64,000 bases of DNA from Cylindrotheca closterium (taxonomy: Eukaryota > Bacillariophyta > Bacillariophyceae > Bacillariales > Bacillariaceae): assembly GCA_933822405.4 (NCBI GenBank), contig CAKOGP040001758.1, positions 673,657-737,656 on the forward strand. The letters are read 5' to 3'. Below are positions 2-21,207 of the stretch, one piece after another. The position numbers and the translations under genes are program-made. Below the pieces are notes generated by a model, which worked only from the letters and a program-made list of their open reading frames with translations, searched no databases and had not been told where the DNA came from. Within the stretch, counting starts at the first letter, position 1, and each line of letters begins with the position of its first letter.

Positions 2-2263
2 GTCAATCGAGTGGAAGATTTCCCCCACCAAACTTGCCAGACGGCAGCGGACCAAGCCATTCTCGATTCCTTCTTGGGAAATAACAATAACACGTCAAAG
101 TCCCTCTTGGTGGTGGAGGACGAAATCACCTCCCAACTCGGGGCATACACGTTGAAATCCACGCATTCCATGCAACTGATCGGACGTTACGCACAGGATC
201 GCATGGAATACGATTATGACTATTTTGTCACGAACCGGATTCAACCTACCCTTCAACTCTTGCAAGGCGCTGCCACTCTGACAACCACTTTCACATCCTT
301 TCCATCAGTATTGAATCACGAGGAGCTAACACAACGCCTTGAAGATTCCTTGAAGGATTTGGAAGCTACTCTCGATGCGGCCAAGACTCAGATGGACAAT
401 TTATCCGCGAGACTACAAGATTACACCCAGAGCATTGAAGCATTCTATCAACATTATCAAGATATCTACAGTCGACTCCGAAAGGGTGCCGAATTTGTAA
501 TTGAATTCCTTCCGACTGGTTCGAAGATACCAAATATGTTTGAAATGAACAGTCTTCCCAGAGCCAACTCGCTGTTGCCACAATTCTATCATTATCCAAT
601 AGATAATGATTTTGCCCTCCAGACCCAACAAGTGTTGGAGCAAACCAAAACAAAATTTATTCTGCTGTTGGAAGAGGTCTACACCGAAGTAGAACAAGAA
701 GCAAAGCATCACTTGAGAGGGCACAGCATGGACTTGATGGACAAAATTTCTGTTTCGTTGCAAATGGAAGGCTACGATCCTCCCAAATTTCAGGGGTCAC
801 TTGACGGAATCACCACCACCGTGGAGAAAGAGTTGCAATATGTGCAATCCCTAGGCAAGCAAATGCACCAGAGTACGACTGAAGTACTGGGACCATTGAA
901 AGACTTGTACCAACAACACCTTTCCACCAGCAACTTTCCATCCAACTTGACAATAAGTGGCAGTTGGAATCAGTCGTCCGCCATTGCCGCATCCGACATC
1001 TTGCCAACCACGACCTTTGATTACCTAAAGCCGGTATTTCCAGATATCTCGATTCCAGAATTTTTGCTTTCGATCTTTTCTTGGATTCTATCCAATGCTT
1101 GGATCGTCGAGACTGTTGTCCAAGCAATACGGTTGTGGATCTTGGAGGCCAAATATACCAAAGGAGCAATCCCCGATCTACCAGTACTGGATTACGAAGA
1201 GGAGTTTCTGTCACGGACCTTTGAAAACAATGGAGAATCTCGGTCGTTGGCACTCTTGTTCAAGACTCTTTTGTCTGCCTTTGCCTCGCCTTTGTACTGG
1301 TTGGGCTTGGTCCTTGTCCCACTGACTTTGGGAATCTTGGTCATTTGGCGTCCTCATGTACAGACGAGTTGTGTGGATTCCAGAAATGGTACCTACCTTG
1401 CCAATAATTTCTTTGCACCACTGCTCATTAATGGAGCCAACGCTCCTGGACATGCTCTGTATCTGCAGGGAGAATCGGAATGTCATCAATCCAAACAATC
1501 CATTTGCAATGAGATGTCGGTAGAATTCGACGCCGCCCTTCATTCGGACACGGCAACTGTGAATGCGTTGAAAGTACACCGAAATGAGTCTCTTCAAACG
1601 ATTCATGCCTTGGAAACTTGTATCGATTTGAGCTTGAATGCTGAAGCAATGGATCTGGCATGTTGTGGATTGAAGGGATACGGAACACAGAACTGCAATG
1701 ATACAGATCTGGTTTGTCCCATTGACGAGCTCGCTCCTCACGGAGAAGCTGCATCTTTTCGACCAGTGATGGAGTATATTGAGGATGGATCTTGTGCGAC
1801 TGACCGATTTCCTTTGAACTTGGACGATGCTCGCTTCAACTGCGCAGCTCTTACCAACGCATGTTTCGATATTCCATGTACTGGTGTGAACGAGGACTAT
1901 CTTTTGGCCAAGACCATTGGAGTAGACTGCCAAATTGAGCTGTATGTTTTGGATTGCTGCTCTTTTATCATTGTGGTTCTGTATCAGGTCATTGCAGTGA
2001 GTTTGATTTGCACAATGCTGTTTCAAGGGATTCGGCAGCTCTTTTGGCGCAAGCTATGTCCAGATGGAGTTCGCTTTCACACTCAGCTCTGTGAGAATGG
2101 AAAAATTGCATTTGGCGACAGCAAAATGGATCGGTTTGAGCGAATGTCAGTGACAATCCAACGCTATGAGCGCAGTGGTAAATTCAAGTTGATACTTGGA
2201 TGCTTGGCACTGATTTGGTGGGGTATCTCATTGGTCGTATTTCGTCATTATGAGGTTTTCTGA
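2..2263 (+). CDS. Large multi-span membrane protein, 5' end outside window
   Basis: The frame is open to the left edge with no ATG near it, so the N-terminus lies outside the window; it ends at TGA 2261-2263, leaving about 754 residues. The first 340 residues (counted from position 11) are mostly helical, with a coiled-coil-like stretch around 105-150. Hydrophobic segments lie near 349-372, 421-445, 645-673 and 727-747. Between the second and third lies a Cys-rich loop of about 200 residues, probably extracytoplasmic and disulfide-bonded, with several N-x-S/T sites. The overall plan (long soluble segments between few membrane spans, Cys-rich loop) recalls tetraspan surface proteins such as prominins, but I see no diagnostic motif and assign no function. 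The 271-residue antisense frame inside it looks like a shadow. Confidence 0.75.
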   Translation, partial: VNRVEDFPHQTCQTAADQAILDSFLGNNNNTSKSLLVVEDEITSQLGAYTLKSTHSMQLIGRYAQDRMEYDYDYFVTNRIQPTLQLLQGAATLTTTFTSFPSVLNHEELTQRLEDSLKDLEATLDAAKTQMDNLSARLQDYTQSIEAFYQHYQDIYSRLRKGAEFVIEFLPTGSKIPNMFEMNSLPRANSLLPQFYHYPIDNDFALQTQQVLEQTKTKFILLLEEVYTEVEQEAKHHLRGHSMDLMDKISVSLQMEGYDPPKFQGSLDGITTTVEKELQYVQSLGKQMHQSTTEVLGPLKDLYQQHLSTSNFPSNLTISGSWNQSSAIAASDILPTTTFDYLKPVFPDISIPEFLLSIFSWILSNAWIVETVVQAIRLWILEAKYTKGAIPDLPVLDYEEEFLSRTFENNGESRSLALLFKTLLSAFASPLYWLGLVLVPLTLGILVIWRPHVQTSCVDSRNGTYLANNFFAPLLINGANAPGHALYLQGESECHQSKQSICNEMSVEFDAALHSDTATVNALKVHRNESLQTIHALETCIDLSLNAEAMDLACCGLKGYGTQNCNDTDLVCPIDELAPHGEAASFRPVMEYIEDGSCATDRFPLNLDDARFNCAALTNACFDIPCTGVNEDYLLAKTIGVDCQIELYVLDCCSFIIVVLYQVIAVSLICTMLFQGIRQLFWRKLCPDGVRFHTQLCENGKIAFGDSKMDRFERMSVTIQRYERSGKFKLILGCLALIWWGISLVVFRHYEVF

Positions 2264-3046
2264 TGAATGAAGTGCACGACGCTTATATTGCTCCCAACAG
2301 CCATCAACATAGATGTTACAACCAAATGAATAGTAATAATATAATTTGAGTGTACCATCCTTACCTATCTATTTTATGCTGCTACCATCTGAGTACCAAG
2401 TACTGTTAGGTAGAGTACAGACAGCAGCCAGCATCTGTAGTCGAAGGAATCAATCAATCAAAGCTTTCAAGTTTTCATCACCAACCGCGATGCAGTACGA
2501 CAAATTGGCGCGTGATCACTTTTGTCAAAACGAAACAAACGTCACTCACTCTTCGCATCGGTCTCCCCTACTTGGTACGTGTGATACCAGTATCACTACT
2601 CCCAACCTGCAATCTAAGGTTCTGGTTTTGCCTGAAATCCTTTCCCATTCCGAAAGCCGAAGGCCCAAAGAATGGCTGCCAATGCGAACCTCCATGTAAA
2701 TCACTATCAATGCGAACAGACACCTTTGCCGCACCGCACTATTCAAGCAACAACTTCCGTTCTGTTCACTTTCATATCACCGAAGCATGATAAGTGTTTC
2801 ACCAGTACTGGTAGTCGGAGTCTCCAGCAGGATGCGCAATCCGAAATTGGTGATTGGACGAGAACTCCTCACATTTTGAAAATTGCAAAGCAAGAAACGC
2901 ACATAAATTATACCTTTCCCCAATGTAAGTTGGTAAACAAGGAATCAACTTACTTGACTCTTTTATTTCACTTTCAACTGACACAATCCCTTTCGGAATG
3001 CAGCAACTACTGATATCATCATTTTCTTTCATCTGTTCTTACAAGA
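2264..3046. other. Intergenic, no gene seen
   Basis: This 783-bp stretch separates two plus-strand genes. It has only short overlapping frames without family resemblance or convincing splice partners. It should contain the 3' end of the upstream transcript and the promoter and leader of the SLC13 gene. Confidence 0.6.
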
Positions 3047-4852
3047 ATGAACTCACTGAAGCCCAATAAAGTTGAGCCGTTGCATCCTGATGATGTCCCA
3101 GAAGCATCCGATACCTCCAACACTGACGACTTGGAGCTCCTTGAGAAGGCTCCACACCAATCTTTCTCTACGACGGACATGACTGGCACTGTTGAATCTC
3201 ACAACTATGAAGACTCGGAGCTTCTTGAGAAAGCTCCTCCAGTCCAAGAAGACAACGATATGGGCCCAGAAGACAACGAAGAAAGTGGCAAGAGTTGGTT
3301 TCGAATCATCATTTTTCTTGCTGCTTTCATATTTGGAATTGTCCTCTGCTTCATCGAAGTCGGTGGAGACGATAAGATCAGCAAGACTATGGCTGTCGCT
3401 ATTTGGATATCTACTCTTTGGCTGACTGAGTTGATCCCTCTTGTCGTCACTGCATTCATGCCACTATTCCTTTTCCCTATGTTTGGCATTGTAAGCTCTG
3501 CAACTGTTGCCGGAGCCTACATGAACAACACTATCTTCTTGTTTTTGGCTGGGATGCTTATGGCTTTGACACTTGAGCGTTGGGACTTACACCGTCGCTT
3601 TGCTTTCAAGATCTTATCTTGGTGTGGTGCAAAGCCTGGTGCTCTACTGTTCGGCATGATGTTTGCGACCTTCATCCTTTCGATGTTTGTTTCAAATACT
3701 GCTACAGCATTAATGATGGTACCAAATGCGATTCCTATCATTGACTGCCTAGAGCGTCAAGCTTCAGTCGAAAACAAGGAAGAATCCAAGCGATTTGGTG
3801 TTGCAGTCATGTTAGGCATCGCATACGCTGCCAATGTTGGTGGAATTGCAAGTTTGATTGGCACACCACCAAATCTTGTATTCCAAGCACAGCTTGAAAT
3901 CATTTATCCAGAGGCTCCCGAAGTTACCTTTGCTGATTGGTTCAGCTTTGGATTTCCTCTCGGTCTTCTCATTTTCGTCATTGAATGGATCTATCTACGA
4001 TTCTTGTACCTACGCAACTACAGTGGCGCCGTCGTCGACAAAGATATCTTTCTCAACAAGTACAAAGAACTAGGGGCATGGACGTTCGAACAAGTGTATG
4101 TCTCTATTCTCTTTACAGCCTTGGCTCTGCTTTGGATCTTTCGCGGAGATATGAATTTCTCTTCTTTCACTCTCAAAGGATGGACTAGCATCTTTGCCGA
4201 AGGCAAGATGATCTCCGATGCAACGATAGGTATGCTGGTTGCAGTCATCCTGTTTGTCACACCAGCAAAGCCCTGCAATCTTCCTGGTGCTCCCGCAGAT
4301 GCCACGAGCAAACGCACCATCACGGTATTGGACTGGGAGACGGCCAAGAAACTCCCTTTCGACATCATCTTTCTTTTCGGTGGAGGCTTTGCCCTAGCAA
4401 AAGGCTTCGTGGCGTCGGGATTATCCACTTGGTTGGGTCAGAGGCTCGTTGTTGATGCAGTCTCGCTTCCTGTCCAAGTCTTCTTGGTTACATTTGTAAT
4501 TGAGTGGGTAACCTGCTTAACTTCGAATACCGCCACTTCGAACATCATGATTCCAATTGCTGCAGAAATGGCCAATGCAGCCCAGGTGTCTCCGTACACG
4601 ATAATGATCCCTGTCACCTTGGCTTGCAGTTGTGCCTTTTGCTTGCCAGTGGCAACTCCTCCAAACATGGTGGCGTTCTCTTCTGGATACCTTCCGATAC
4701 GTGAAATGATGAAGGCTGGCGTCTTCATGAATGTTATTTGCTCGATACTAATAGTGGGATGGACCTTTTCTCTCATCCCTTCTGCCCTAGACTTGGAGCC
4801 TGATGAGTTCCCTGAATGGGCTGAGACAGCATCCTTTGCTGGCTCAGCATAA
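3047..4852 (+). CDS. SLC13/DASS-family sodium-coupled anion (dicarboxylate or sulfate) transporter
   Basis: A 601-residue unspliced membrane protein. It carries the two hallmark Ser-Asn-Thr hairpin motifs of the divalent anion:Na+ symporter family, at about Ser216-Asn217-Thr218 and Ser493-Asn494-Thr495, plus the conserved GTPPN stretch after the first; in this family these form the Na+ and substrate sites. About 11 hydrophobic segments follow an acidic N-terminal tail of about 83 residues. That tail holds two near copies of an acidic dileucine-like motif, DDLELLEKAP and EDSELLEKAP, which could be sorting signals (inference). Substrate (dicarboxylate, citrate, sulfate or silicate-unrelated anion) cannot be read from sequence. 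The ATG at 3047 has A at -3 and is the first in frame. Confidence 0.93.
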   Translation: MNSLKPNKVEPLHPDDVPEASDTSNTDDLELLEKAPHQSFSTTDMTGTVESHNYEDSELLEKAPPVQEDNDMGPEDNEESGKSWFRIIIFLAAFIFGIVLCFIEVGGDDKISKTMAVAIWISTLWLTELIPLVVTAFMPLFLFPMFGIVSSATVAGAYMNNTIFLFLAGMLMALTLERWDLHRRFAFKILSWCGAKPGALLFGMMFATFILSMFVSNTATALMMVPNAIPIIDCLERQASVENKEESKRFGVAVMLGIAYAANVGGIASLIGTPPNLVFQAQLEIIYPEAPEVTFADWFSFGFPLGLLIFVIEWIYLRFLYLRNYSGAVVDKDIFLNKYKELGAWTFEQVYVSILFTALALLWIFRGDMNFSSFTLKGWTSIFAEGKMISDATIGMLVAVILFVTPAKPCNLPGAPADATSKRTITVLDWETAKKLPFDIIFLFGGGFALAKGFVASGLSTWLGQRLVVDAVSLPVQVFLVTFVIEWVTCLTSNTATSNIMIPIAAEMANAAQVSPYTIMIPVTLACSCAFCLPVATPPNMVAFSSGYLPIREMMKAGVFMNVICSILIVGWTFSLIPSALDLEPDEFPEWAETASFAGSA

Positions 4853-5436
4853 ACCGCACGGTCTAGCTGCTATTGTATCCATTAATGTAATCTCACAATA
4901 TTATAAACAACTTCTGTTTGTACACTCTAGCTAGTGTCATTGACTTTTGCTGATTTGTGTGGCAAACGAAGAGAAGATATAAAGAATAGCACTTATCAAT
5001 AGGTTTTTTCGATTGATTGATTCGATCCCGTCGACTACTTCGTCTCTACCGGTAAGATAGCCCTGCCGTCCTCCGATCAGCTCTTATAGGAGGGAGGTTG
5101 GAAGTTGTTAGCTGCACGTCACGCTGGCCGATCGCAATGAATGAGGGCGGCGTGTAAGGAGCTGGAGTTTTTCGTTCACTTGCAGACAAAGGCTGGGTAC
5201 CAAGAGAAAAATTGAATTACCACGACACAAGTGGGTGAATTCAATCTCAGTCGATAAATTGGGCATCCTTTGCGCATCGACAACAACTTTTGACGGTCGA
5301 AGGCCGTTCGGCCTTTGTCCGTCTGTAACACGATGTAGTCAAAGTGATCGAACAAAAATATCACGTGATTTTAAAAATATTGTTGCAAAACATTCAGTGA
5401 AAGTTGCATTACATTTCAAAATCAATCACTTGCTTT
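4853..5436. other. Intergenic, contains left inverted repeat
   Basis: No coding signal is seen here. The stretch includes the 3' end of the SLC13 transcript and, at 5301-5353, the left terminal inverted repeat of the element described separately. The transporter ATG is 83 bp inside that repeat. Confidence 0.6.
5301..5353 (+). repeat. Left terminal inverted repeat, 53 bp
   Basis: Pairs with 11050-11102 in inverted orientation (50/53 identical). The outer part holds a tight hairpin, AAGGCCG-TT-CGGCCTT, with 7-bp arms and a 2-base loop. Confidence 0.8.
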
Positions 5437-7214
5437 ATGGAACCTGTTCCCTCTACCGATGACGAGCACCAAGAGCAGCACGACAATCATAACAAATTGA
5501 ATCTCTGGCAAGGTGTCGCCTTGCTCACGGCAGACTGCCTTGGTGTTGGCGTTCTTGCCTTGCCATATGACGCTTACAAATTAGGATGGTCGTTTGGACT
5601 TCCTTTTCTCATCATCAACTTTCCAATCAATTACTTTAGTGGAAATTACCTGTCTGTAATCGCATTGGATCTGGAGAGAGATTCAGATGCACAAGAAGAT
5701 GGCGAAAATGCGACAGAGCTGGATGAAACAGCCGACAATGCGGAATTAGAAATGCAAGAAAACCATTCCCATAAACAAACGTCCAGAAAGACGTACGCAG
5801 AAGTTCCAAAATCACCTTCAGCTGAGGAATCCATGGTAGATGAAGACATCTTTAACGATGAAGATATTGTTGAAGATACTTTGGAAGAAGAAGACGAGCC
5901 TCCAGTCCAGCCACCGACATCTTCAACCTATGATTTGATTTCAATCAGCGACCAAGTGTTTCACGGGCCACACGCAGCCAGACTTGTAGCTCTTCTTTAC
6001 TACACGAACTTATTTTTGGTATTGGGTGACTATTTGCTTGTGATGAGCAGAGCGGTGTCTGCGATGCTGGCGGATAAGATCTGCTTGCCCGTTGCCGGCA
6101 TAATAGCATCTCTCCTCATGTTTGCAATATGTCAACTCAAGACAATGGCTAATCTGGGGAGGAAGGTTTCTGTTGTTTCGCTACTTGCTATGGTCATTGT
6201 ACTCGCCCAGTGTCTATTCCATCACCGAATGGGTTCCGCAATTCCTATCGATTTTGCAGAAAGAGAAAATCCAAGCATGTGGCAGAAACTAGGTGCATTG
6301 GCCAGCATTGCGTTTGCAGTTGGCTCACAGAAGCTCTTCTTGAATATTCGCCATGAGCTGAAGGATAGAAAACAAGCATCAACGACCTTGGGATGGTCAC
6401 TCACTTCGTATGGAGCTACATATTTGCTTGTCATTCTGTTTGCTGGGCCACGTAAGTCACACCAATTGCCATTGAACGTATTTTACAGATAGTCGATTGT
6501 GTCTCACATGACTATATCTCGAAACGATTAGACCCGCCATCGTTTCTCTTTGACGCCATTCCTGAAGGAATAAGCAGACGGATAGCTGGGCTTCTGCTGT
6601 GGGGTCACGTTGCTGTGAGTTATGCCATCAATTGTCAGGCTCTTTGCTCTTCGATTGATAGGGCCCTGGTGTTGCGGTTTCCCGTCACATCGGATGACTC
6701 TTCGAAACGTTGGCTTGGCCTCACATTGTCAGTATGTGTATCATCATACTTGGTGGCCAACGCAATTCCGTTCTTCAAAGATTTGGTCGCCCTCATTGGT
6801 GCACTGACAAGTATACCATTGACGTTGATGCTGCCAGCTTTGCTGCATCAAAAGGCGACAAACCTTCGATTATGGCTTCCAAGGGTAGGAGAATGTTTTC
6901 CGCTTGTGGGCTCATACCCGTTACTCGTTTATTCGTTGGTCTTTTTCATCGTTGGACTCCTTGGCGCGCTATCGTCAATTGATCAAGATTGGCTGAGTCA
7001 TGGCAAACCGTTCTCTTGCCGGTAAGCTCATGTAAATTCATATAGAAAGTATATTCCCGGAGTTTGAGTTCTTGGGTATGTCTTTGGAAAGAGAGTACGA
7101 TTCATTGGAGCTATCTCAATCTCAACTTGTAGTGGTCCAAACGTGAAATGTCTTTGTCTCTGTAGGAGTGGGGATGCTGCCGATAGCATCTTGCCTTCCG
7201 ATTGCTATCCGTAA
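5437..7214 (+). CDS. AAAP-family amino-acid transporter (three exons)
   Basis: Exons 5437-6451, 6532-7021 and 7166-7214 join in frame to 517 residues. Introns are GTAAGT-TAG and GTAAGC-TAG, 80 and 144 bp. The first membrane helix carries the Aa_trans-type sequence with a G-V-G-V-L-A-L-P core, and about ten further hydrophobic helices follow, so it should move amino acids or related solutes across the plasma or an internal membrane. A long acidic loop of about 90 residues splits the helix 2-3 region (around residues 80-160), unlike compact family members. The last exon adds only 15 codons. I use ATG 5437; the frame extends upstream without ATG. It appears intact, in contrast to the broken gene facing it 155 bp downstream, and both lie between the same inverted repeats. 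Confidence 0.85.
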
Positions 7215-11795: not shown

Positions 11796-12992
11796 CTAGT
11801 GCAAAACTAGCAATCGGTTCTCAGTTGATCGTGTAGTATATATAACTAGTTCTGCACTCTTGTAGCCCAGTTGCTGCTGGCAGAAAGCAGCACGCGATAG
11901 ATCAAACAGTTGCTTTATCCGTATTCCAAGCAGAGATTTCTCTTCTCTCGTGAAGTGCCTCTCGAACTCCTGTGAGGGAATGAAATCCTTTTCTAGGTCT
12001 TCCATTGCTTTCTCAAGGTTTTTCTTGGCAAGTGATGCGACTGAGAAGAGATCTGGCAAAGTGCTTGCCTCTGAATCGGATAGACTGGTGGCGTGTTGTT
12101 GTGGAATGTTTCGGGAATCTTTGGTGCCAGCTGTCGTGTCGCCCTTCTCTGCTTTTCTCCTCTTTGCTGATTTATTCTTCTTCTCCTGAAGACTTGCCCA
12201 TTGACTTACAGCAGTAGCGACGACGAAATCTTCCTCTGACAAACCGGTTGATTCCCAAAACTCCCTGCCCGAAAAGCTATCAAACGTGCAAAGGTAGTGG
12301 CAACAGGTAGCAATGGCAGTTGGTGGAGGGGGGCACTGCCCAGAGTTCTGCACTGACCTCGATAGTGCATGTAGAGTCAAGTCACAGGCTGGACCACAGA
12401 GGTGTTTGGACATGCAGAGTGTTTTCTTCCCCACTTGTCCATCGTCACAGTTGTCGAAGTAGTGATCCAGCTGCAATGATCCAATATCGACGATGACGCG
12501 TTCTATGACGGGAGCTTTTTCTTCTCTTGTTTTCTCCTCTCGTGCTTGTTCTATAACCTTCTTCTCGGATCTTGCCAACAAATGACGATCTCGGCAGTGA
12601 TTCTGTGCAAAGTTTTGGCGGTCAATCATGATATGATCCAATGTCGCATTCGTGGAACGCTGCAATCTGTCGGATAATCTCGCGGTTCCTGCTCCGAGTT
12701 CAATAGCTCGAGTAGTTTCGCTATTCAAAGCATTTATGCGTCGCAAGTGGCCAATGATGGAAACTTCTTGGAGGACATGCTTGCCACCTTCTTCCCCTTG
12801 GTTGTCGACATTGGCTTCTCCAATAATGTAGTCTTGCGATGTTAAGATTTCTTGAAAAGGAACCTTTGGTAGAAACTTTGAAATCACATCAAGCTTGGCA
12901 ATTAGTCTCTGAACTTGTTCACCCGTAATGTTCTGAACCTTCGACCTGGAGTTTTTCCCTAATCCATCTTGCCTTGAAGGTGCATGGCTCAT
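11796..12992 (-). CDS. TRM13: tRNA 2'-O-methyltransferase TRM13
   Basis: A 398-residue unspliced protein of the TRM13 methyltransferase family, which 2'-O-methylates position 4 of the acceptor stem of certain tRNAs using SAM. Visible family features are the SAM-site core ELGAGTARLSD near residue 95, the MSKHLCGPACD block near 200 and the CCHYLC motif near 230. The frame continues upstream of ATG 12992-12990 to a TTG but holds no earlier ATG, so I start here. The N-terminal CHHC and CCCH zinc fingers typical of fungal and animal TRM13 are not seen; either this lineage lacks them or an upstream exon was missed. A Lys-rich insert (about residues 270-300) looks disordered. The 3' end converges on RPB12 with about 280 bp between. 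Confidence 0.88.
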   Translation of the reverse strand: MSHAPSRQDGLGKNSRSKVQNITGEQVQRLIAKLDVISKFLPKVPFQEILTSQDYIIGEANVDNQGEEGGKHVLQEVSIIGHLRRINALNSETTRAIELGAGTARLSDRLQRSTNATLDHIMIDRQNFAQNHCRDRHLLARSEKKVIEQAREEKTREEKAPVIERVIVDIGSLQLDHYFDNCDDGQVGKKTLCMSKHLCGPACDLTLHALSRSVQNSGQCPPPPTAIATCCHYLCTFDSFSGREFWESTGLSEEDFVVATAVSQWASLQEKKNKSAKRRKAEKGDTTAGTKDSRNIPQQHATSLSDSEASTLPDLFSVASLAKKNLEKAMEDLEKDFIPSQEFERHFTREEKSLLGIRIKQLFDLSRAAFCQQQLGYKSAELVIYTTRSTENRLLVLH

Positions 12993-13436
12993 TTTTCTGT
13001 GTTGATGTCTTCGTATTTTCAGTTGTTGGCTTTGTGTGGCACAGGCAGACGACAATGAGGCACGACTATTCCAGTACCTGATTTGAATTTGAAAACTTCG
13101 CGTGTTCTAATTTTGAATCTCGTCTTGAGTCGTCGTCGATGTGTTATGGTGGTAATCGAAGTTTTATAGTACTGCTTGTGTACAGTATAGCAAAATCTTG
13201 AATATACATGTGTCTGTTACCACTGTGAACACTTATTATCCCGCGGGAACAGTTCGATGTTTGAACATTCAAACGCAGCTTTTGAGGATAAACCTCAAAT
13301 GAAGCATCGGAATTGTGCATCACTTTCCAGCCTAATGTACACTGAATCATCGACATGACTGTTGCTACCCACAGATCTGCACACAACACCAAGAGACTGA
13401 CTCTTCCAATTTCGGATGCGTCCTCTTCTATCATGA

Positions 13437-13883
13437 AGAACCCAGCTGCAAAGACGCCTCCGATACACGAAGAAACTGAATGTAGCAACAGCACCTGGGA
13501 AACTATTGACATTTTCCCTACCACCATCGAGCAGAATCAATTACTTGAGGGTCAACGGGCCAAGAAGCGATGCATCGAAAAGGAAAGCTTCGAAAAAGAA
13601 ACGACCACCTGGAACATCAGCAGCTGTGACACTATTGACACCTTCCCTTCCACCATCGAGCAGCAAGAATTACTTGATGGAAAATGTTGCAAGAAGCAGT
13701 AGACCACCAAGAAGCGATGCGTCGAAAAGGAAAGTTTCGAAAAAGGAAGGTTCACCTGTAACAGAAAGAGCTGCGAATTCAGTGACATTTTCCCTACCAC
13801 CATCGAGCAGAATCAATTACTTGAAAGTTGATGCTGCAAGCAGTAAACCAAGAAGCGATGCGTCGAAAAAGAAAAGCAAGTAA
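13437..13883 (+). CDS. Possible exon of a basic repeat protein, start not found
   Basis: One plus-strand frame stays open for 148 codons through three tandem DNA repeats and ends at TAA 13881-13883. Each unit encodes a segment like SLPPSSRINYL followed by PRSDASKRK, Lys/Ser-rich and nuclear-looking. Length differences between units are multiples of three, and one of the visible substitutions (GCA to GCG) is silent only in this frame, which supports it over the ATG-started frame at 13355-13702 that runs into a stop in unit two. No ATG precedes the repeats after the TGA at 13434-13436, so it would need an upstream exon or be a remnant. No family recognised. Confidence 0.35.
   Translation, partial: RTQLQRRLRYTKKLNVATAPGKLLTFSLPPSSRINYLRVNGPRSDASKRKASKKKRPPGTSAAVTLLTPSLPPSSSKNYLMENVARSSRPPRSDASKRKVSKKEGSPVTERAANSVTFSLPPSSRINYLKVDAASSKPRSDASKKKSK
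13497..13882 (+). repeat. Three degenerate tandem repeats of about 100-150 bp
   Basis: Units begin near 13504, 13632 and 13784 with a shared core around TTTTCCCTACCACCATCGAG and each contains AAGAAGCGATGCRTCGAAAA. The third unit is truncated. Unit lengths differ by small indels. Confidence 0.8.
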
Positions 13884-14083: not shown

Positions 14084-17000
14084 CTAGCTCGCAGGATCGT
14101 CGCCATTCACAATTGCCTCGGCGAAGTCAAGATGATCCAGTATGTTTGACGATTTCTCGTCCCAAGTCACTTGGCATTTGCCAGGTCTTCTGGAGCTTCG
14201 CACTGTGGTACTTCTAATAGAACCGAGCTCGCCACCATCAAAACTGAACTCATCATCGGAGTATATCTTATACCAGTCTTGTTTGCGGAAGTGTTCACGA
14301 ATCTCCATTGAAGACTTGCTCTTGAGCTCGGTCGCTCCAGGGGCGCCCTTGTACGCAACAGCAATCAAGTTTCCACAAGCAGCTTCCATTTTTTTCTCGT
14401 ACTTTTTCATGACCTTTGATAGTGTTTCCACGTCGTTGACTATTTGAGATGTTAGCGTGACTGTGCTGACATCAGATTTCCCAGAGTGCACCGAGCCGAC
14501 TTCATTGCGTCGATGTCTTCTTCGTCTCGTGGCCTTTTGTAACATCGAGCGACAGAGCTCTTCGCCTTCTAACTTCCACTTCATACGGTTGTTCTTCGCC
14601 TGTCGTAAGAGTTGTTGGCAGACGATGTTCAGTACACCACATTCACTCAGGTTGGTGGCCAAAGGAATCACCCAATTGTCGAAGAACCAGAGTTCACCCT
14701 TGTACCAACCATCTGAAGGATCCTTATCTGATCGGCCTTCCGCGAACGCGTCGTACATTTCAAAGAAAAGGCATTCATTCCAAAGGCGATAGAGATTCCA
14801 CTCTTGCATAGTGTGAGCAACGTCAGACGTTTGCATAATGTGTTCCATAACAATCGTAGCTCGGCAATTCGCCTCTTCGTCTTGGCATGTGAAATCTGAC
14901 GGACCTTCCGGGAAACTCTTCTCCCAGCGCTTTTTCCTCAGAGCTCGAAGATCACTGTCGAAAATGTCAGTAGCCATGACACAGTTGACCAGAAGATTAC
15001 GAAAGCGCCCTTGCTCATTATTTGACTCAAAGAGACACTTGTGCAAATTTCGGAAGCTATCAGTCATCAATATTTCCCAAGCAATAACGATAGAGTTTTG
15101 CTCAGCGATGCTCTTGTTGCAGAACTTCTCTGCAAGTTCAGGTTTTTCTTCGGCAAGTTGCCCATTAGGCACACCCGTATGACCCACATCGTGAACCAAA
15201 GCCGAGAGGACGATTGAAAATCTAGCAAGTGGATCGCATGCAAAGCCGTTTTCGCTGGCACTGGAAAGAAGAAGATTTGCCAAATGAGCTACATGACTCG
15301 CATGGAGGAAATTGTGAAATCCATTTTTCTGGTATCCAGAAGCTATCATGGCAACCAAGTTGCGAAGCTCTGACAGAACCACAGGTGATAAATCGGGTCT
15401 CGAGATACCCTCCTTCGCTTTCTGAACTCCTTCGATTTTCTTTTGCATCTCGATCACCATCTTGATTTCATCAAACGGGGTACTCAGAGTTCCAGCCATC
15501 GAAGATTTCTGGTCGAAATTGTCTTCCGCCGCTGTGTGGCTCATGACAACATCAAACAAGAGTCTCTCGAGCAATTGGACATTAGCAGTGACGAGACTAG
15601 AAATTTTGTTTTCCGAGTCCACCTTTGCAGCAGGAAGAAGGCTCGCTGCAAGCCATTCTTTACCACTCTTCCTCCAAGTTGCCATGTTGCGAGCTGCACT
15701 GTCTGCAAGATATGATGCTTGCGGTAAGATTCTTTCCAACTCAGAGACCAGTGGAACGACAGCATCATCAAAGAATAAAGTCTGCTCGTGGTACCAACCA
15801 ACTCGAGGATCATCGGCCCGTCCATCGTCATAAGCCTGCATGACTTCTTGGAATTCGCGATGATTCCAACTCAAGAAGAGATCAAACCGTTGGCTATAGT
15901 GTCCGATTTCTGCCATTGCAAGAATTGCTGCCAAACTAGCCCCACGAGAGCTTCGTGAATCGGTACTTGGTTCATTTACTGCCCTTATGGCCTTGATGAT
16001 TTCGCGAACCGACTGTGCAGATTCGATATTCGACGATAGAACCAACTTGCGAAGGGTGCTTCGGAAGGTGGGATAGCCAAATGAAATCTCTTCGTAGAGA
16101 TCCGGAAATTCTTCTTCGAGAAGTTCGAAAGCGGAAGAAAAGGAATACCTCTCTTGGTAACAGCCTCTGTTCTTGTGTTTTTGGAAAATGATGTGGTTGC
16201 TGGCCTTCAATTGTTCATTTTTCAAGCCACTGTGATTTACGTTGTGAATCACTGCAGCGAAGAGCAGAATAAAGCGATCCCAAGGGTCTTTCCCCAGCGC
16301 AAACGGATTTGTCTCATCTTCCGACCGATCGTTCCATAAGAAGTCTGCCCTGAGGAAGACTTCTGCAGAGTGAGCAAAATTATGAAATGCATTGGTACCA
16401 CTGTGAAGCTCAGCGATAGATTCAACATAGCCGCGGAGTTGTACAGACATGATCTCCATTCTATTTCCTTCCTTATGAACACAAGCAGATAATGCAGAAA
16501 GCAGAGTCTCGTACACCTTGGAGATTAACTCCTGCTGGGACAAGGAAGTTTGCCAGCAGAGATCATCCCAATTTCTGTTCAAGCTGAAAAGCTGCTCTTG
16601 AGAAAACTCTATGATTGCACCAAACCCATCGTCAACATTATCCATGTCGATATCATCCTCAATGTCATCCTCGAGCAACTTATCATTACTGTCTACGCTT
16701 GAGTTCTCCATGAAGTCATCGAAAGATGATTCGCTGCTTCTGCAGCTTGATGCCTCGTCAAAACCGCTTGAAGACCCACCACCAGAGGATCCACCACTCA
16801 GAGAACCAGATTCTCCACCTAATCGAAACAGGCCTCCGCGTCGAAAGTAGCGTCGCATCTTCCATTTCTTTGAAGATAGCATTGCTGCAGTTTCCTCGTT
16901 GAGGCACTCTAAAGCCTCTGCGTTTGCTTCATGATTGTCTGTAGTCGCACCGTTGAGCCAATATGTATAGTGTTCTCCCTTCCCCTTCATATCCACTAGG

Positions 17001-19141
17001 CCCCTTGGCGTAAAGCTAAACTGTTGTGCATCCTCCTTGCCAAGGTGTTTCAGTCGACCGAAGAGGGCACTGGAACAGTGGATCTTTCCTGCAATAGCAG
17101 TGGATTCATGACGAGCTGTCGTGTTGACCATGTCTCCTGCAGAAGAATCACAAAACGGATGAGATGATTGTTTGATTCCAAAGGGACGTTGCAAACGCCA
17201 CATTTACGTACCAAACAAGCAATAACGAGGCGTCATTGTTCCAACAACCCCAGATGTACAACTTCCAGTGTGGATACCAATGCGTAGTTGAATTGGTTCG
17301 CCGTCCACGGGAGACTTGATGTGCTGCACACAATGTGAAACGGCAAGCGCAAAATTTGCAACATTCTCGGCGTGGTACTCACTTGGCTCCGGAAGCCCTG
17401 AGCAACACCTGTGCGAGAAAAAAAGCGAGGGGCATGAGCAATTGATATGGATGGAATGGCAACAGCAAGAAGATCCGTAGTCGTCAACTTACATGTACGC
17501 ATCTCCGACAGTTTCAACCTTGTACAGATTAAAATGCTTTACAAGGTGGTCCATCACTGAATAAAGCTGGTTCATCATATCGATGACATCCCAAGGGTCG
17601 ACCAGATCACAAATCTGAGTAAAGCCAACGATATCGGAGAAGAACAATGTGACATTACTATGGAACTTTGGCTCCACCGATTTTCCCTTTCGGAGTTCCT
17701 CAGCGACCCCTTTGGGAATGATACTATAGAGTAGTGCGTTGGATAGACGTTGTTCGTACTTGAGCTTGCGGTTGAGTTTGTCCAACTTGTGTGCCTTGCC
17801 GGCTTCTTGAGTGACATATTCGCCCAAGAAGATGGCATCGCGTTGGCTAGTAGTCAGGGGCAAATCCGACAGCGTCAATCGCATCTTCTCGAGCTCGGCA
17901 ACGTTGCCGACCTCGGGAAGGAGCGAGAACAGGATCTTGTCCTTTGAGAGCTGAATCATGGCAGCCTTGAATTTGATATCATTTTCTTCATTGGCATCTT
18001 TGTGTTGTAAATTATCAATTTGGGCAATGGCAACGCGCCTTCGGTTGCCCTTGGAAGCCGGTACCACGAAGAAGTGTTGGTCCGATACTTTCTTCAGTGT
18101 CTTCCAGTTCCAGCTTCCGTTCATATTGGGACGTGTGACTTCGAGAACATCTCCAATGTGAGTACCGACGATCTCTTCGGCACGCCTTTCCAATACTCTT
18201 GGTAATATGTCGCCTGTTTGTAGCACTTGGAAGTCTCTGTTGACGAGGACATGAAATGGAAAGACCTCCCTCATTTTCTTCATAGTGATGCCCCCAACTT
18301 GTCCCTCGTCACGAGTGGTGAGAGACAAAGAGGATTCCGGTTTGATATTCGCAGAATCATCCATGACACTATCCTCATCTTGAGAATTTTGCAGATTCGC
18401 TCTGAAGGGACACCTGTTAGTGAAGGATGTCCTACCAATCACATTCGATTCCATACCCTTTTTTCGAGAAAAGGGGCACCCATTGGGCGTGACAACGCTG
18501 TCCAAGCTGACATGGTTTTCTTCGCTTTCGACTATAGGCCTTGGCGATAACTTGAATTGTTTGGCAGCATCGACAGCCGTGATGCGCCAAGTAGTAGACG
18601 AAGCCCCATCTTCGTCCTGGAGAGCTTGCTGATCCATTCTTATCTCGACGTCAAAGAATCTGTCGGCAATTTCGGAAACAATTCCAACAACCCAAGGAAC
18701 CAAGAGGTTCCCTCGCTTGCTTGTATAGTGCAACAAGATGGACCCTTCCACCCAGTCGCAATCTTCGCACCAAAAGACTGGAGGACAGTAGTTGTCTCCA
18801 GGAAAGCTTCTTTGAATGTGATCGTGCATAGCATTCAGATTAGACAACCACTGACGTAGAGTGGAACCTTGACACTTCAAAAGGGCACCATAGCCATTAT
18901 CAAAATGATACTGAATGTTGTATCGGCCATATGACTCGAGTATATCAGTTGATGTAATATTCAACTCTTGGGAAGCAGCTTCCACAAGATCCTTCCATGT
19001 CTCGTATCGGTAGTAAGTTCTTGTGACAAATGCGTTGTCAGCAACCTCGCATCCTGCTCGAGCCTTAATGGCATGCCATGTGTCAATATCATGGTTGTGT
19101 ATCACCCAGGCTTCGAAAATTTCATAGACTAGTCCGTGCAT
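14084..19141 (-). CDS. Soluble guanylyl cyclase-phosphodiesterase fusion: H-NOX, HNOBA, cyclase, two PDE domains
   Basis: Exons 19141-17493, 17408-17212 and 17136-14084 join in frame to 1,632 residues without membrane spans. Residues 1-180 form an H-NOX domain with the proximal heme histidine His106 and the Y-x-S-x-R heme-propionate motif (Tyr139, Ser141, Arg143). An HNOBA segment follows at about 285-470, then a class III cyclase domain with metal aspartates Asp503 and Asp547 and guanylyl-specificity residues Glu543 and Cys613 (RYCLFG). After an acidic linker come two class I PDE-type HD domains. The second keeps His1223, His1264-Asp1265, AEQNS and Asp1387, so it looks active; the first has His867 and His913 but Asn914 and Glu1025 where metal aspartates belong, so it looks catalytically dead. 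By family, the H-NOX should sense NO (or O2/CO), the cyclase make cGMP and the last domain hydrolyse it. First ATG in frame used. Confidence 0.93.
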
Positions 19142-19662
19142 GATTTCCGAATTTTTTTATAATGAGCTGTGAGAAGATACCGTCCCCGAAATCGGGACAG
19201 AAGCTTAGAAGCTTGATGGGGGGTTCGGAGGCTTTTACGTGTGACAGTGAAGACGACATCATAAATGTGATCACAGTGTTCGGATCTGTGATATCAAAGT
19301 GGCCCATGTTGGACTGTAATCTCTATGTATACGAGCGCCAAATTGTCCGATTAGAAAGCTCGTGTGAAATAGCTTGGTCCAAATCCGAATCGTACTGTAT
19401 TAGATCTGCCCCTTTCGCTAAGGTGATCACAAGATAAAATATTGAAAACAACACTTCCCCTCCCCTTGAAGCTTCCTGATGCGACACTTCGCAAAGCTCT
19501 TTGCATCAGCCTTCGTCAACCATCAGCCTTCGTTGGACGCGGAGAACGGAACTATTTGAGCTCTGTTGGTCGACCAAACGGACTAGAAACCAAATCGGTG
19601 TTGCGACATTTCTCAGCGAAGCTGCCATCAGTACATGCATGTACTGTACATCCTTTGGAGCA
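19142..19662. promoter_or_regulatory. Divergent promoter region
   Basis: This 521-bp gap lies between the start codons of the cyclase-PDE gene (minus) and the NYN ribonuclease gene (plus), so it must hold both promoters unless starts are misassigned. The plus frame remains open back to 19501 but without an ATG in good context. No specific binding site is claimed. Confidence 0.4.
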
Positions 19663-21207
19663 ATGGTACGACCGAGACTAGTACAAGAAGGTGTACCGAT
19701 CTATGGGCCTGGGTCAGAAGCGGAATATTCACAAAACAGTCAGAATCATAATGACCATGCAATGGAAAGCAGACCGAACCCACCACCTGCGTCGGCGCCA
19801 TCTAGGCTCGTTGGACCACACAAAATGTCGTCATTGCAACGAGCTGCAGGTGCCTCAGCGTCACATCGAAATGCAAAGTATAGGTCATCAGCATTATCGA
19901 AAAAAAAGAAAACGAGTTACACCATTGGAGGTTCATCCACCCTTGAAGCCAAAACAACTACTTCAAGCTCTTACTCGAATGATCCCCCTTTGAAATCTCA
20001 GGATGGGATGGAATCACGCACGCAACAACAGCATTCCCACAACTATACTGTGGGTAACCCCCAGCATGAACAAGATGCCCCGTCTCACAATGGGGCGTAT
20101 CAGAAAACAGTTGAAAATGACCACATGATGGAAGACGATCCCATGTCTCCTTACAATCAGAACAACAACAACCATGGTTACAACCACGGAAATTCATCGC
20201 ATCAATACCATCGCCAACCTATTCCTCATGCTAGTCTAGGCCCGCTGTCCCCCACTCCTGAACCTCCAACCTCCTTTATTATTGGTGGCAGCAGTCCCAT
20301 TCCACCATCGCACCAATATCAACAACAACCAATTCCGCATCCAAGTCAGCCCATCTCCGCACCTCCAACGTACTATGGAGACAGCAGTCCATTGCCACCA
20401 TTGCACCACTATCAGCAACAGCCTATTCCGTATTCAAGCCCCGGTCCGATTCCACCCGCTCCTGCAACTCAAACGTCTTATGCTATTGGTGGCAGCAGCC
20501 CCGCTTCACAGTCTCGACCACAAAGCGTGGAAAAAATGGAAGGCGTGCAAGATCATGGCAGCAAAACGCCACTTGTCGTTCTGGACGGAGCCAATGTTGC
20601 TCATTATTATGCGGATGCTTTGGCGGCCATGAACACAACCTTTAGCGACAAGAGTCGTCGCAGAGGCAAACCAGAACCAGATACTCGTGGCATTCAAGTG
20701 GCCACAGATTATTTTCTATCGGTAGGCGTTCGTGTTTTAGTGGTTTTGCCGCAATACTGGATGCGCAAGAAACCAAGGCCAGGTGATACTAGTAGCCAGA
20801 ATGCAATGATGGACACCAATCAAATGGATATTTTGAAAGATTTGAATGACAAGGGTTTAATTGTGGCATCGCCTCCAGCCGATGATGACGATGCTTATGC
20901 TTTGACGATTGCCAAACGAGAAGAAATGAGGGCTGTTCGACAACGGAACGGTGAAGGGCCAGGATTTGTTTTGAGTAATGACATGTTCCGTGATGCACAA
21001 GCGCGTGATCCTACTGGAGTCATGAAAGAGTGGTTGAAGGAAGGAAGAAATGAGACCATTGGACCAGGAAGAATTTCATACGCTTTTTGTGACATGGGTA
21101 CAATGGATGATCATGGAGACCGAATCTTGGATTTTGTGCCGAATCCTAGGCATCCCTTGGTGATTTACGTGGAGGGGCTGCATCATCAGACCATTTTGAA
21201 TAGATAA
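19663..21207 (+). CDS. NYN/PIN-like ribonuclease of the Zc3h12a type with repetitive Pro/Gln-rich N-terminus
   Basis: The 514-residue product ends in a domain of about 210 residues like the RNase_Zc3h12a (Regnase) NYN fold. Acidic residues expected at the metal site are present: Asp308 in LDGANV, the run Asp407-Asp410, and Asp440 in LSNDMF. Members of this family are Mg-dependent endoribonucleases that degrade mRNA or RNA precursors; no CCCH zinc finger is seen here. Residues about 170-290 contain roughly three imperfect copies of a 33-residue unit with HxYQQQPIP and ending GGSSP or similar, and a Lys-rich patch lies earlier. I choose ATG 19663 (G at -3, G at +4) over ATG 19639, whose context is poor. 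Confidence 0.82.
   Translation: MVRPRLVQEGVPIYGPGSEAEYSQNSQNHNDHAMESRPNPPPASAPSRLVGPHKMSSLQRAAGASASHRNAKYRSSALSKKKKTSYTIGGSSTLEAKTTTSSSYSNDPPLKSQDGMESRTQQQHSHNYTVGNPQHEQDAPSHNGAYQKTVENDHMMEDDPMSPYNQNNNNHGYNHGNSSHQYHRQPIPHASLGPLSPTPEPPTSFIIGGSSPIPPSHQYQQQPIPHPSQPISAPPTYYGDSSPLPPLHHYQQQPIPYSSPGPIPPAPATQTSYAIGGSSPASQSRPQSVEKMEGVQDHGSKTPLVVLDGANVAHYYADALAAMNTTFSDKSRRRGKPEPDTRGIQVATDYFLSVGVRVLVVLPQYWMRKKPRPGDTSSQNAMMDTNQMDILKDLNDKGLIVASPPADDDDAYALTIAKREEMRAVRQRNGEGPGFVLSNDMFRDAQARDPTGVMKEWLKEGRNETIGPGRISYAFCDMGTMDDHGDRILDFVPNPRHPLVIYVEGLHHQTILNR

What the first reader, a model, noticed from the sequence alone, without database searches (positions are those of the whole stretch)
14084..19141. One polypeptide joining a heme gas sensor, a cGMP-making domain and a cGMP-destroying domain
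Seen directly: a frame-consistent three-exon gene encodes H-NOX (His106, Tyr139-x-Ser141-x-Arg143), HNOBA, a cyclase with guanylyl-type Glu543 and Cys613, and two PDE-type HD domains. Known: animal soluble guanylyl cyclases are alpha/beta heterodimers and their PDEs are separate proteins; cyclase-PDE fusions are known from diatoms and other protists, mainly membrane types. Inference: this is a self-contained, soluble NO (or O2) responsive pulse generator in which synthesis and removal of cGMP are physically tied, and it likely works as a homodimer because one chain has all cyclase residues.
Basis: partly seen in the sequence, partly recalled or inferred. Interest (0 to 1): 0.88.

Follow-up and report, generated by a model that had tools for sequence, protein, structure and literature searches.

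The report
Gas-sensing cGMP maker-breaker in a diatom
A diatom gene encodes one chain joining a haem gas-sensor domain, a cGMP-making domain, a broken phosphodiesterase domain and an intact one, so one molecule is predicted to switch cGMP on when it binds a gas and also to remove it; the genome carries 14 related sensor-cyclase genes, which likely form a family of differently tuned gas receptors.

Summary
The window (diatom Cylindrotheca closterium) encodes, on the minus strand with two introns, a 1632-aa chain H-NOX, HNOBA, guanylyl cyclase, PDE, PDE, identical to a public record. Two things change the reading. (1) Only the second PDE has the catalytic metal residues. The first has Asn914 and Glu1025 in place of two Asp, and the first PDE is altered in 28 of 28 tandem rows, yet it stays under purifying selection. 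First PDEs are the counterparts of the single PDE that is intact in Ditylum and others; where the second came from is unresolved. (2) It is a family: 15 H-NOX loci, 14 with HNOBA-cyclase-PDE. Two of the 14 lack the haem histidine, so alpha-like partners are possible. Position 150 is Trp in the window gene and always goes with Asn/Ser75 (15 of 15 rows, about 11 genes), so ligand choice may differ from animal sGC. NO, the pulse and homodimers are untested. I found no paper on this fusion in seven searches of a partial library. Verdict: a real new variant of soluble guanylyl cyclase.

The parts
14084..19141 (-). whole gene, 3 exons, 1632 aa
   Evidence: public protein P0001 identical
17409..17492 (-). 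intron 1, 84 bp, GT..AG
17137..17211 (-). intron 2, 75 bp, GT..AG
18632..19138 (-). H-NOX (HNOB) domain, residues 2-170
   Evidence: PF07700, 111 bits; sGC beta-1 and Nostoc H-NOX hits
18824..18826 (-). predicted haem ligand His106
18917..18919 (-). Asn75, at the column of Nostoc H-NOX Trp74
   Evidence: alignment (residue number by counting); Trp74 named in PMC7356049
18692..18694 (-). Trp150, at the column of sGC beta-1 residue 145 (by counting); distal-pocket role of that residue recalled
17693..18286 (-). HNOBA (PAS-like) domain, residues 286-483
   Evidence: PF07701, 104 bits
17720..17845 (-). predicted long helix, residues 433-474, leading to the cyclase
   Evidence: AlphaFold2 model
16949..17671 (-). 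guanylyl cyclase domain, residues 491-678, both introns inside
   Evidence: PF00211, 199 bits; D503, E543, D547, R592, C613, N620, R624, K666
15701..16387 (-). first PDE domain (predicted pseudo-PDE), residues 866-1094
   Evidence: PF00233, 67 bits; N914 and E1025 in place of metal-binding Asp
16241..16243 (-). Asn914, broken HD motif of the first PDE
15908..15910 (-). Glu1025 in place of the second metal Asp of the first PDE
14642..15319 (-). second PDE domain, residues 1222-1447, metal residues intact
14693..14695 (-). Glu1430 in place of the purine-clamp Gln

Best explanation
This is a single-chain H-NOX guanylyl cyclase with a built-in phosphodiesterase, predicted to be soluble, to raise cGMP when a gas (likely NO) binds its haem, and to remove that cGMP through its second PDE domain. 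Likely steps: the gas binds haem on His106 (inferred); the signal passes through the PAS-like HNOBA domain and the long helix to the cyclase (inferred from the sGC-like order of domains); two chains pair and make cGMP, with Glu543 and Cys613 choosing GTP (residues shown, activity inferred); PDE2 hydrolyses cGMP nearby (residues shown, activity and substrate inferred), so the signal would be brief and local. PDE1 has lost metal ligands (shown) and, being kept by selection (shown for paralogs), likely regulates or pairs the chains (inferred).
For: Domains and residues. sGC-beta-like order: the exon-1 model's best match is human sGC beta (E 1e-27, TM 0.45-0.56 by query length for the human beta chains), and its H-NOX part matches Nostoc H-NOX (TM 0.93 by target length). 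PDE2 fold. The six PDE2 residues are intact in 11 of 13 genome rows and 22 of 28 tandem rows; Glu at the clamp is also found in 18 of 21 other PDE rows sampled from this genome, 15 of those 18 with all six residues, so it need not mark decay. PDE1 is altered at two or more of six residues in 14 of 14 genome rows while its dN/dS is 0.20-0.28 in four paralog pairs. Two NOS-domain loci lie in the same genome and NOS transcripts of C. closterium are published (PMC4648414, passages), so an NO source is likely. No membrane-like stretch.
Against: No activity, haem spectrum or expression of this gene was seen. Algal CYG12 and CYG56 showed no NO response in vitro and CYG11 responds to CO (PMC8728061). 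Asn75/Trp150 is unlike sGC, so another ligand is possible. Two haem-less paralogs with full cyclases allow heterodimers. One paralog (C556/P0023) has Ala for Cys613. PDE1 changes faster than PDE2: 39-41% against 60-64% identity to three paralogs, and against the near orthologue P0002 PDE1 (82%) is no better kept than the linker before it (81%). Nothing shows that synthesis and hydrolysis are timed to give a pulse. Many related H-NOX cyclases do without a PDE (56 of 120 proteins).
Confidence: 0.6

Rival explanations
1. It is the haem-bearing subunit of heterodimers with haem-less paralogs (C330 type), an independent counterpart of the animal alpha/beta arrangement.
For: C330a and C330b have Ile/Phe at the haem His and altered PDE2 metal sites, yet all nine cyclase residues checked are kept. 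The same combination of lost haem His and altered PDE2 is in P0039, P0040, P0045 and P0050 (P0045 is from the C330 contig, so a repeat of one of the two), P0040 being an MMETSP transcript, so the type is maintained.
Against: The window chain has every cyclase residue checked and needs no partner; Chlamydomonas CYG11 is active as a homodimer (PMC8728061). No interaction data.
Confidence: 0.25
2. Same machine, but the ligand is not NO: the Asn75/Trp150 pocket stabilises O2, or the physiological ligand is CO.
For: Trp150 goes with Asn/Ser75 in 15 of 15 rows, and none of the other 83 rows has Asn or Ser75. Asn74 belongs to the H-bond triad of the O2-sensing Cs H-NOX (PMC7356049). [quoted passage not shown] CYG11 responds to CO.
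Against: The known donor is Tyr, absent here; Trp as donor was not described in the passages read. The 15 rows stand for about 11 related genes, so this may be one event. NOS-domain genes are present.
Confidence: 0.35
3. Both PDE domains hydrolyse cGMP.
For: The window PDE1 is among the least altered of the genome's 14 rows (4 of 6 residues kept), and Asn/Glu could still hold a metal weakly.
Against: Two metal Asp replaced; all 28 first-PDE rows altered, while 17 of 30 single-PDE rows are intact.
Confidence: 0.08
4. Mainly a cGMP sink: the sensor drives PDE2, and the cyclase only sets a floor.
For: PDE2 is intact; class I PDE matches are very many in this genome (113 rows).
Against: H-NOX-HNOBA-helix is the known input of the adjoining cyclase (recalled, sGC); 56 of 120 related proteins have H-NOX and cyclase without PDE and none has H-NOX and PDE without cyclase (the query held a cyclase, so the set is biased).
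Confidence: 0.08

Closest known systems
Animal soluble guanylyl cyclase beta-1 (and H-NOX cyclases)
   Same: H-NOX with haem His and YxSxR, HNOBA, helix, GC catalytic domain in the same order
   Different: Carries two C-terminal PDE domains; all cyclase residues in one chain; Asn75/Trp150 in the predicted distal pocket
Seminavis robusta SIP+-induced bifunctional GC/PDE (PMC4726125, passages)
   Same: Cyclase and class I PDE in one diatom polypeptide
   Different: Two predicted transmembrane helices, and no haem sensor in the passages read; the window protein has an H-NOX and no membrane-like stretch
Ditylum brightwellii H-NOX-HNOBA-cyclase-PDE (P0024, MMETSP)
   Same: Same order; its PDE groups with the first PDE of the window protein
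   Different: One PDE, all six residues intact and Gln kept; no second PDE
Chlamydomonas CYG11/CYG12/CYG56 (PMC8728061, passages)
   Same: Algal H-NOX-type guanylyl cyclases; CYG11 active as a homodimer
   Different: No PDE domain is mentioned in the passages read; CYG11 has two H-NOX domains
Degenerate EAL receptors such as LapD/FimX (recalled, no call)
   Same: A dead phosphodiesterase domain kept as a possible nucleotide sensor
   Different: Different fold and nucleotide; sensing by PDE1 is untested

Membership tests
H-NOX / soluble guanylyl cyclase family | H-NOX domain with proximal His and YxSxR | tested here: met
   PF07700 111 bits; H106, Y139, S141, R143
H-NOX / soluble guanylyl cyclase family | HNOBA followed by a long helix and a class III cyclase with GTP-type Glu and Cys | tested here: met
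   helix from a model
H-NOX / soluble guanylyl cyclase family | alpha/beta heterodimer | tested here: inconclusive
   single chain complete, but two haem-less paralogs exist
H-NOX / soluble guanylyl cyclase family | NO-stimulated cyclase activity | not testable with these tools
   needs purified protein
O2-binding H-NOX (Tt/Cs type) | distal Tyr | tested here: not met
   Trp150 at the column of sGC residue 145; that this column is Tt/Cs Tyr140 is recalled
Class I cyclic nucleotide PDE (PDEase_I), second domain | metal-binding His/His/Asp/Asp and catalytic His | tested here: met
   H1223, H1227, H1264, D1265, H1268, D1387
Class I cyclic nucleotide PDE (PDEase_I), second domain | invariant purine-clamp Gln (recalled) | tested here: not met
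   Glu1430; Glu also in 18 of 21 other PDE rows sampled from this genome
Class I cyclic nucleotide PDE (PDEase_I), first domain | metal-binding His/His/Asp/Asp | tested here: not met
   Asn914 and Glu1025; the Pfam family match itself is met, 67 bits
Membrane GC/PDE of diatom mating | transmembrane helices before the cyclase | tested here: not met
   no 19-residue stretch reaches mean hydropathy 1.6; maximum 1.31

The most novel reading that the evidence does not exclude
The first PDE is a dead enzyme turned into a cGMP receptor: it lost the metal site but kept the purine-clamp Gln, and by binding the cGMP made next door it switches the cyclase off or PDE2 on. One molecule would then hold sensor, maker, meter and destroyer of its messenger, and the family would be a bank of such self-limiting gas receptors with different pockets.
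Probability: 0.2. Interest if true: 0.87.

Novelty: new variant of a known kind. Interest (0 to 1): 0.7.

Why it matters
Animals split the NO-cGMP cycle over two cyclase subunits and separate PDEs (recalled); here sensing, synthesis and removal sit in one chain, in a marine alga that also has NO synthase-domain genes. cGMP is implicated in diatom mating: a soluble guanylate cyclase rises 6.3-fold in both mating types of Pseudo-nitzschia multistriata in response to sexual cues (PMC5485032, passages). The protein makes several open questions testable: what diatoms sense with H-NOX, whether a pseudo-PDE can meter cGMP, and whether alpha-like subunits arose a second time.

Tried and rejected
Gene-prediction artefact: rejected, because an identical public protein, paralogs with the same layout and homologous MMETSP transcripts exist.

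Origin of the second PDE: left open. I first read the tree as showing that it came from the genome's Glu-type PDEs. On checking, first-plus-single PDEs and second PDEs are each well supported groups, but both hang with the Glu-type PDEs from one unresolved fork, and a test that holds first, second and single PDEs together as one clade does not reject it (p-AU 0.489). Tandem duplication is therefore not excluded. The trees are midpoint-rooted for drawing only, some branches are long, and the bootstrap had not settled.

Conserved Gln1067 as proof of cGMP binding: not accepted. It is 93% kept in first PDEs but only at the 88th percentile of columns, equal to His917, and Phe1070 beside it is kept in 46%.

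The VIA-align list for the tandem PDE model shows 50 entries, all starting near the end of PDE1 and running through PDE2 (model 219-661), so the PDE1 fold was not tested by structure. The exon-1 model has weak stretches (pLDDT under 50 at 226-282 and elsewhere), so the distal pocket was judged from sequence alone.

A residue-level match to Tt Tyr140 was not made; the one paper listed for it does not state the equivalence in the passages seen. Of the 8 papers shown for I145Y none holds that term.

dN/dS for the window gene against C568b was saturated and is not used; C101a against C101b are nearly identical and gave no PDE1 changes; C330a against C330b is near saturation.

Joining cyclase exon pieces by script gave odd residues at 613/617 in C540a, C540b, C568a and C568b; the annotated proteins P0013, P0014 (C540 contig) and P0015 (C568 contig) have Cys and Asp there, so I take these as joining errors; C568b stays unsure.

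Counts are partly repeats: P0005/C101c and P0007/C190b coincide, and P and C rows otherwise name some of the same genes. Four of the 28 tandem rows (P0035, P0067, P0074, P0091) show no H-NOX in the sequence held. Of 16 single-PDE rows with an H-NOX, 6 are intact.

A C. closterium transcriptome paper lists a cyclase and a PDEase among strongly regulated genes, but the passage does not say which genes (PMC7058042). Passages of PMC1592074 and PMC12558739 mention no H-NOX-cyclase-PDE fusion.
Full report
What is there. The finding is correct in its sequence part. On the minus strand an ATG at 19141 opens a gene that ends at 14084. Removing 17409-17492 and 17137-17211, both GT..AG, restores one frame of 1632 residues. 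The public protein P0001 from Cylindrotheca closterium equals it letter for letter, which also names the organism. Pfam gives HNOB, HNOBA, Guanylate_cyc and PDEase_I, the last in two stretches.

Residue-level reading. The H-NOX part aligns with sGC beta-1 and Nostoc H-NOX and has His106 and Tyr139-x-Ser141-x-Arg143. The cyclase part is closest in the PDB to membrane guanylyl cyclases, then sGC beta, and keeps Asp503, Asp547, Glu543, Cys613, Arg592, Asn620, Arg624 and Lys666 (roles recalled). The first PDE aligns with PDE4 and others, but the Asp of the HDVDH motif is Asn914 and the later metal Asp is Glu1025. The second PDE has all six residues; its purine-clamp Gln is Glu1430.

A family, not a single gene. 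The genome has 15 HNOB matches. Fourteen are followed by HNOBA, cyclase and PDE; the fifteenth, C340, is H-NOX without cyclase. Two of them, C101a and C101b, are nearly identical. One (C540b) has a single, altered PDE. The haem His is present in 12 of the 14; C330a and C330b have Ile and Phe. PDE1 is altered in 14 of 14; PDE2 has all six residues in 11 of 13, the exceptions being C330a and C330b. The wider searches gave 36 homologs of the window protein and 288 of the Ditylum protein, of which the best 120 were listed. Among the 120 proteins held, 20 show H-NOX-HNOBA-cyclase-PDE-PDE, 17 the same with one PDE (one of them, P0086, on a 40-residue match only) and 56 without PDE (sums over its rows, split HNOBA or cyclase hits merged).

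History of the PDEs. In 28 tandem rows the first PDE is altered in 28 (one residue in P0074, two to five in the rest) and the second intact in 22. Of 30 single-PDE rows 17 are intact, Ditylum among them. In the tree first and single PDEs form one group and second PDEs another. I added 21 PDE rows from 20 loci that I picked among the 113 PDE matches of this genome. The two groups stay apart, but the fork that joins them and the genome's Glu-type PDEs is unresolved, and one common clade of first, second and single PDEs is not rejected (p-AU 0.489). So the first PDE has intact counterparts elsewhere and likely lost catalysis; whether the second is a duplicate or a captured family member is open.

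Selection on the dead domain. dN/dS of PDE1/PDE2 is 0.20/0.18 (C101a-C101c), 0.22/0.24 (C190b-C371), 0.23/0.22 (C190a-C371) and 0.28/0.19 (C540a-C568a), ratios taken. So PDE1 is constrained in paralogs. It is less constrained than PDE2 over longer times: 39-41% against 60-64% identity to P0003, P0006 and P0015, with the linker before it at 24-33%. Against the near orthologue P0002, PDE1 is 82%, PDE2 85%, that linker 81% and the first linker 52%.

Sensor pocket. In 98 H-NOX rows His106 is kept in 92; all six exceptions are the C330 type. Trp150 occurs in 15 rows (about 11 genes), always with Asn or Ser75; none of the other 83 rows has Asn or Ser75. Fisher p is 5e-18, but relatedness and repeats make that figure far too strong. 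By the alignment, position 75 is Nostoc Trp74; the same-numbered residue of the O2-sensing Cs H-NOX is Asn74, in an H-bond triad with Tyr140 and Trp9 (PMC7356049, passages; equivalence inferred). Position 150 is sGC residue 145. [quoted passage not shown] The window gene therefore may not share the ligand choice of animal sGC.

Mechanism. I commit to gas-triggered cGMP synthesis with built-in hydrolysis by PDE2, with a regulatory pseudo-PDE between. Shown: architecture, residues, selection in paralogs, family. Inferred: haem, gas, activities, pairing, pulse. NO is plausible because NOS-domain genes are present (C. closterium NOS transcripts in PMC4648414, passages), but CYG12 and CYG56 of Chlamydomonas did not answer NO in vitro and CYG11 answers CO (PMC8728061, passages).

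Prior knowledge. Membrane GC/PDE fusions of diatoms are published (PMC4726125; PMC5485032; passages of both). In searches of an open-licence library, seen as listings plus passages of the papers named in this report, I found no description of an H-NOX-cyclase-PDE fusion; subscription papers are mostly not held. The proteins are deposited under automatic names such as 'guanylate cyclase'. I rate it a new variant of a known kind.

Noticed in passing
L027 (G000:C340:213000-222900), 269-1756 - and 2064-7154 +: Head-to-head pair: an H-NOX protein without cyclase (495-aa frame) and a 1696-aa frame with HNOBA, HisKA, HATPase_c and receiver domains. By eye the H-NOX protein's C-terminal part resembles a repeated module of the kinase, suggesting a split gas-sensing hybrid kinase.
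   Followed up: partly
L018, L019 (G000:C330): Two paralogs lack the haem His and the PDE2 metal Asp but keep all nine cyclase residues checked: candidate alpha-like subunits.
   Followed up: partly
L029 (G000:C478:43500-53400): Two NO_synthase matches on opposite strands about 5 kb apart, 382 bits and 215 plus 54 bits.
   Followed up: partly
G000, 113 rows: Very many class I PDE matches (exon by exon, so fewer genes); Glu in place of the purine-clamp Gln in 18 of 21 rows sampled.
   Followed up: partly
window 13560-13874: 147-bp tandem repeat, 2.2 copies, just downstream of the gene's 3' end.
   Followed up: no
L013 (G000:C568:84000-93500), 2-2534 +: Another cyclase-PDE gene between two H-NOX cyclase genes of the same contig; no H-NOX match in the part fetched, whose start is cut.
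   Followed up: no
window 11796-13106 - and 19480-21207 +: Neighbouring genes: TRM13 tRNA methyltransferase and a Zc3h12a-like NYN ribonuclease domain.
   Followed up: no
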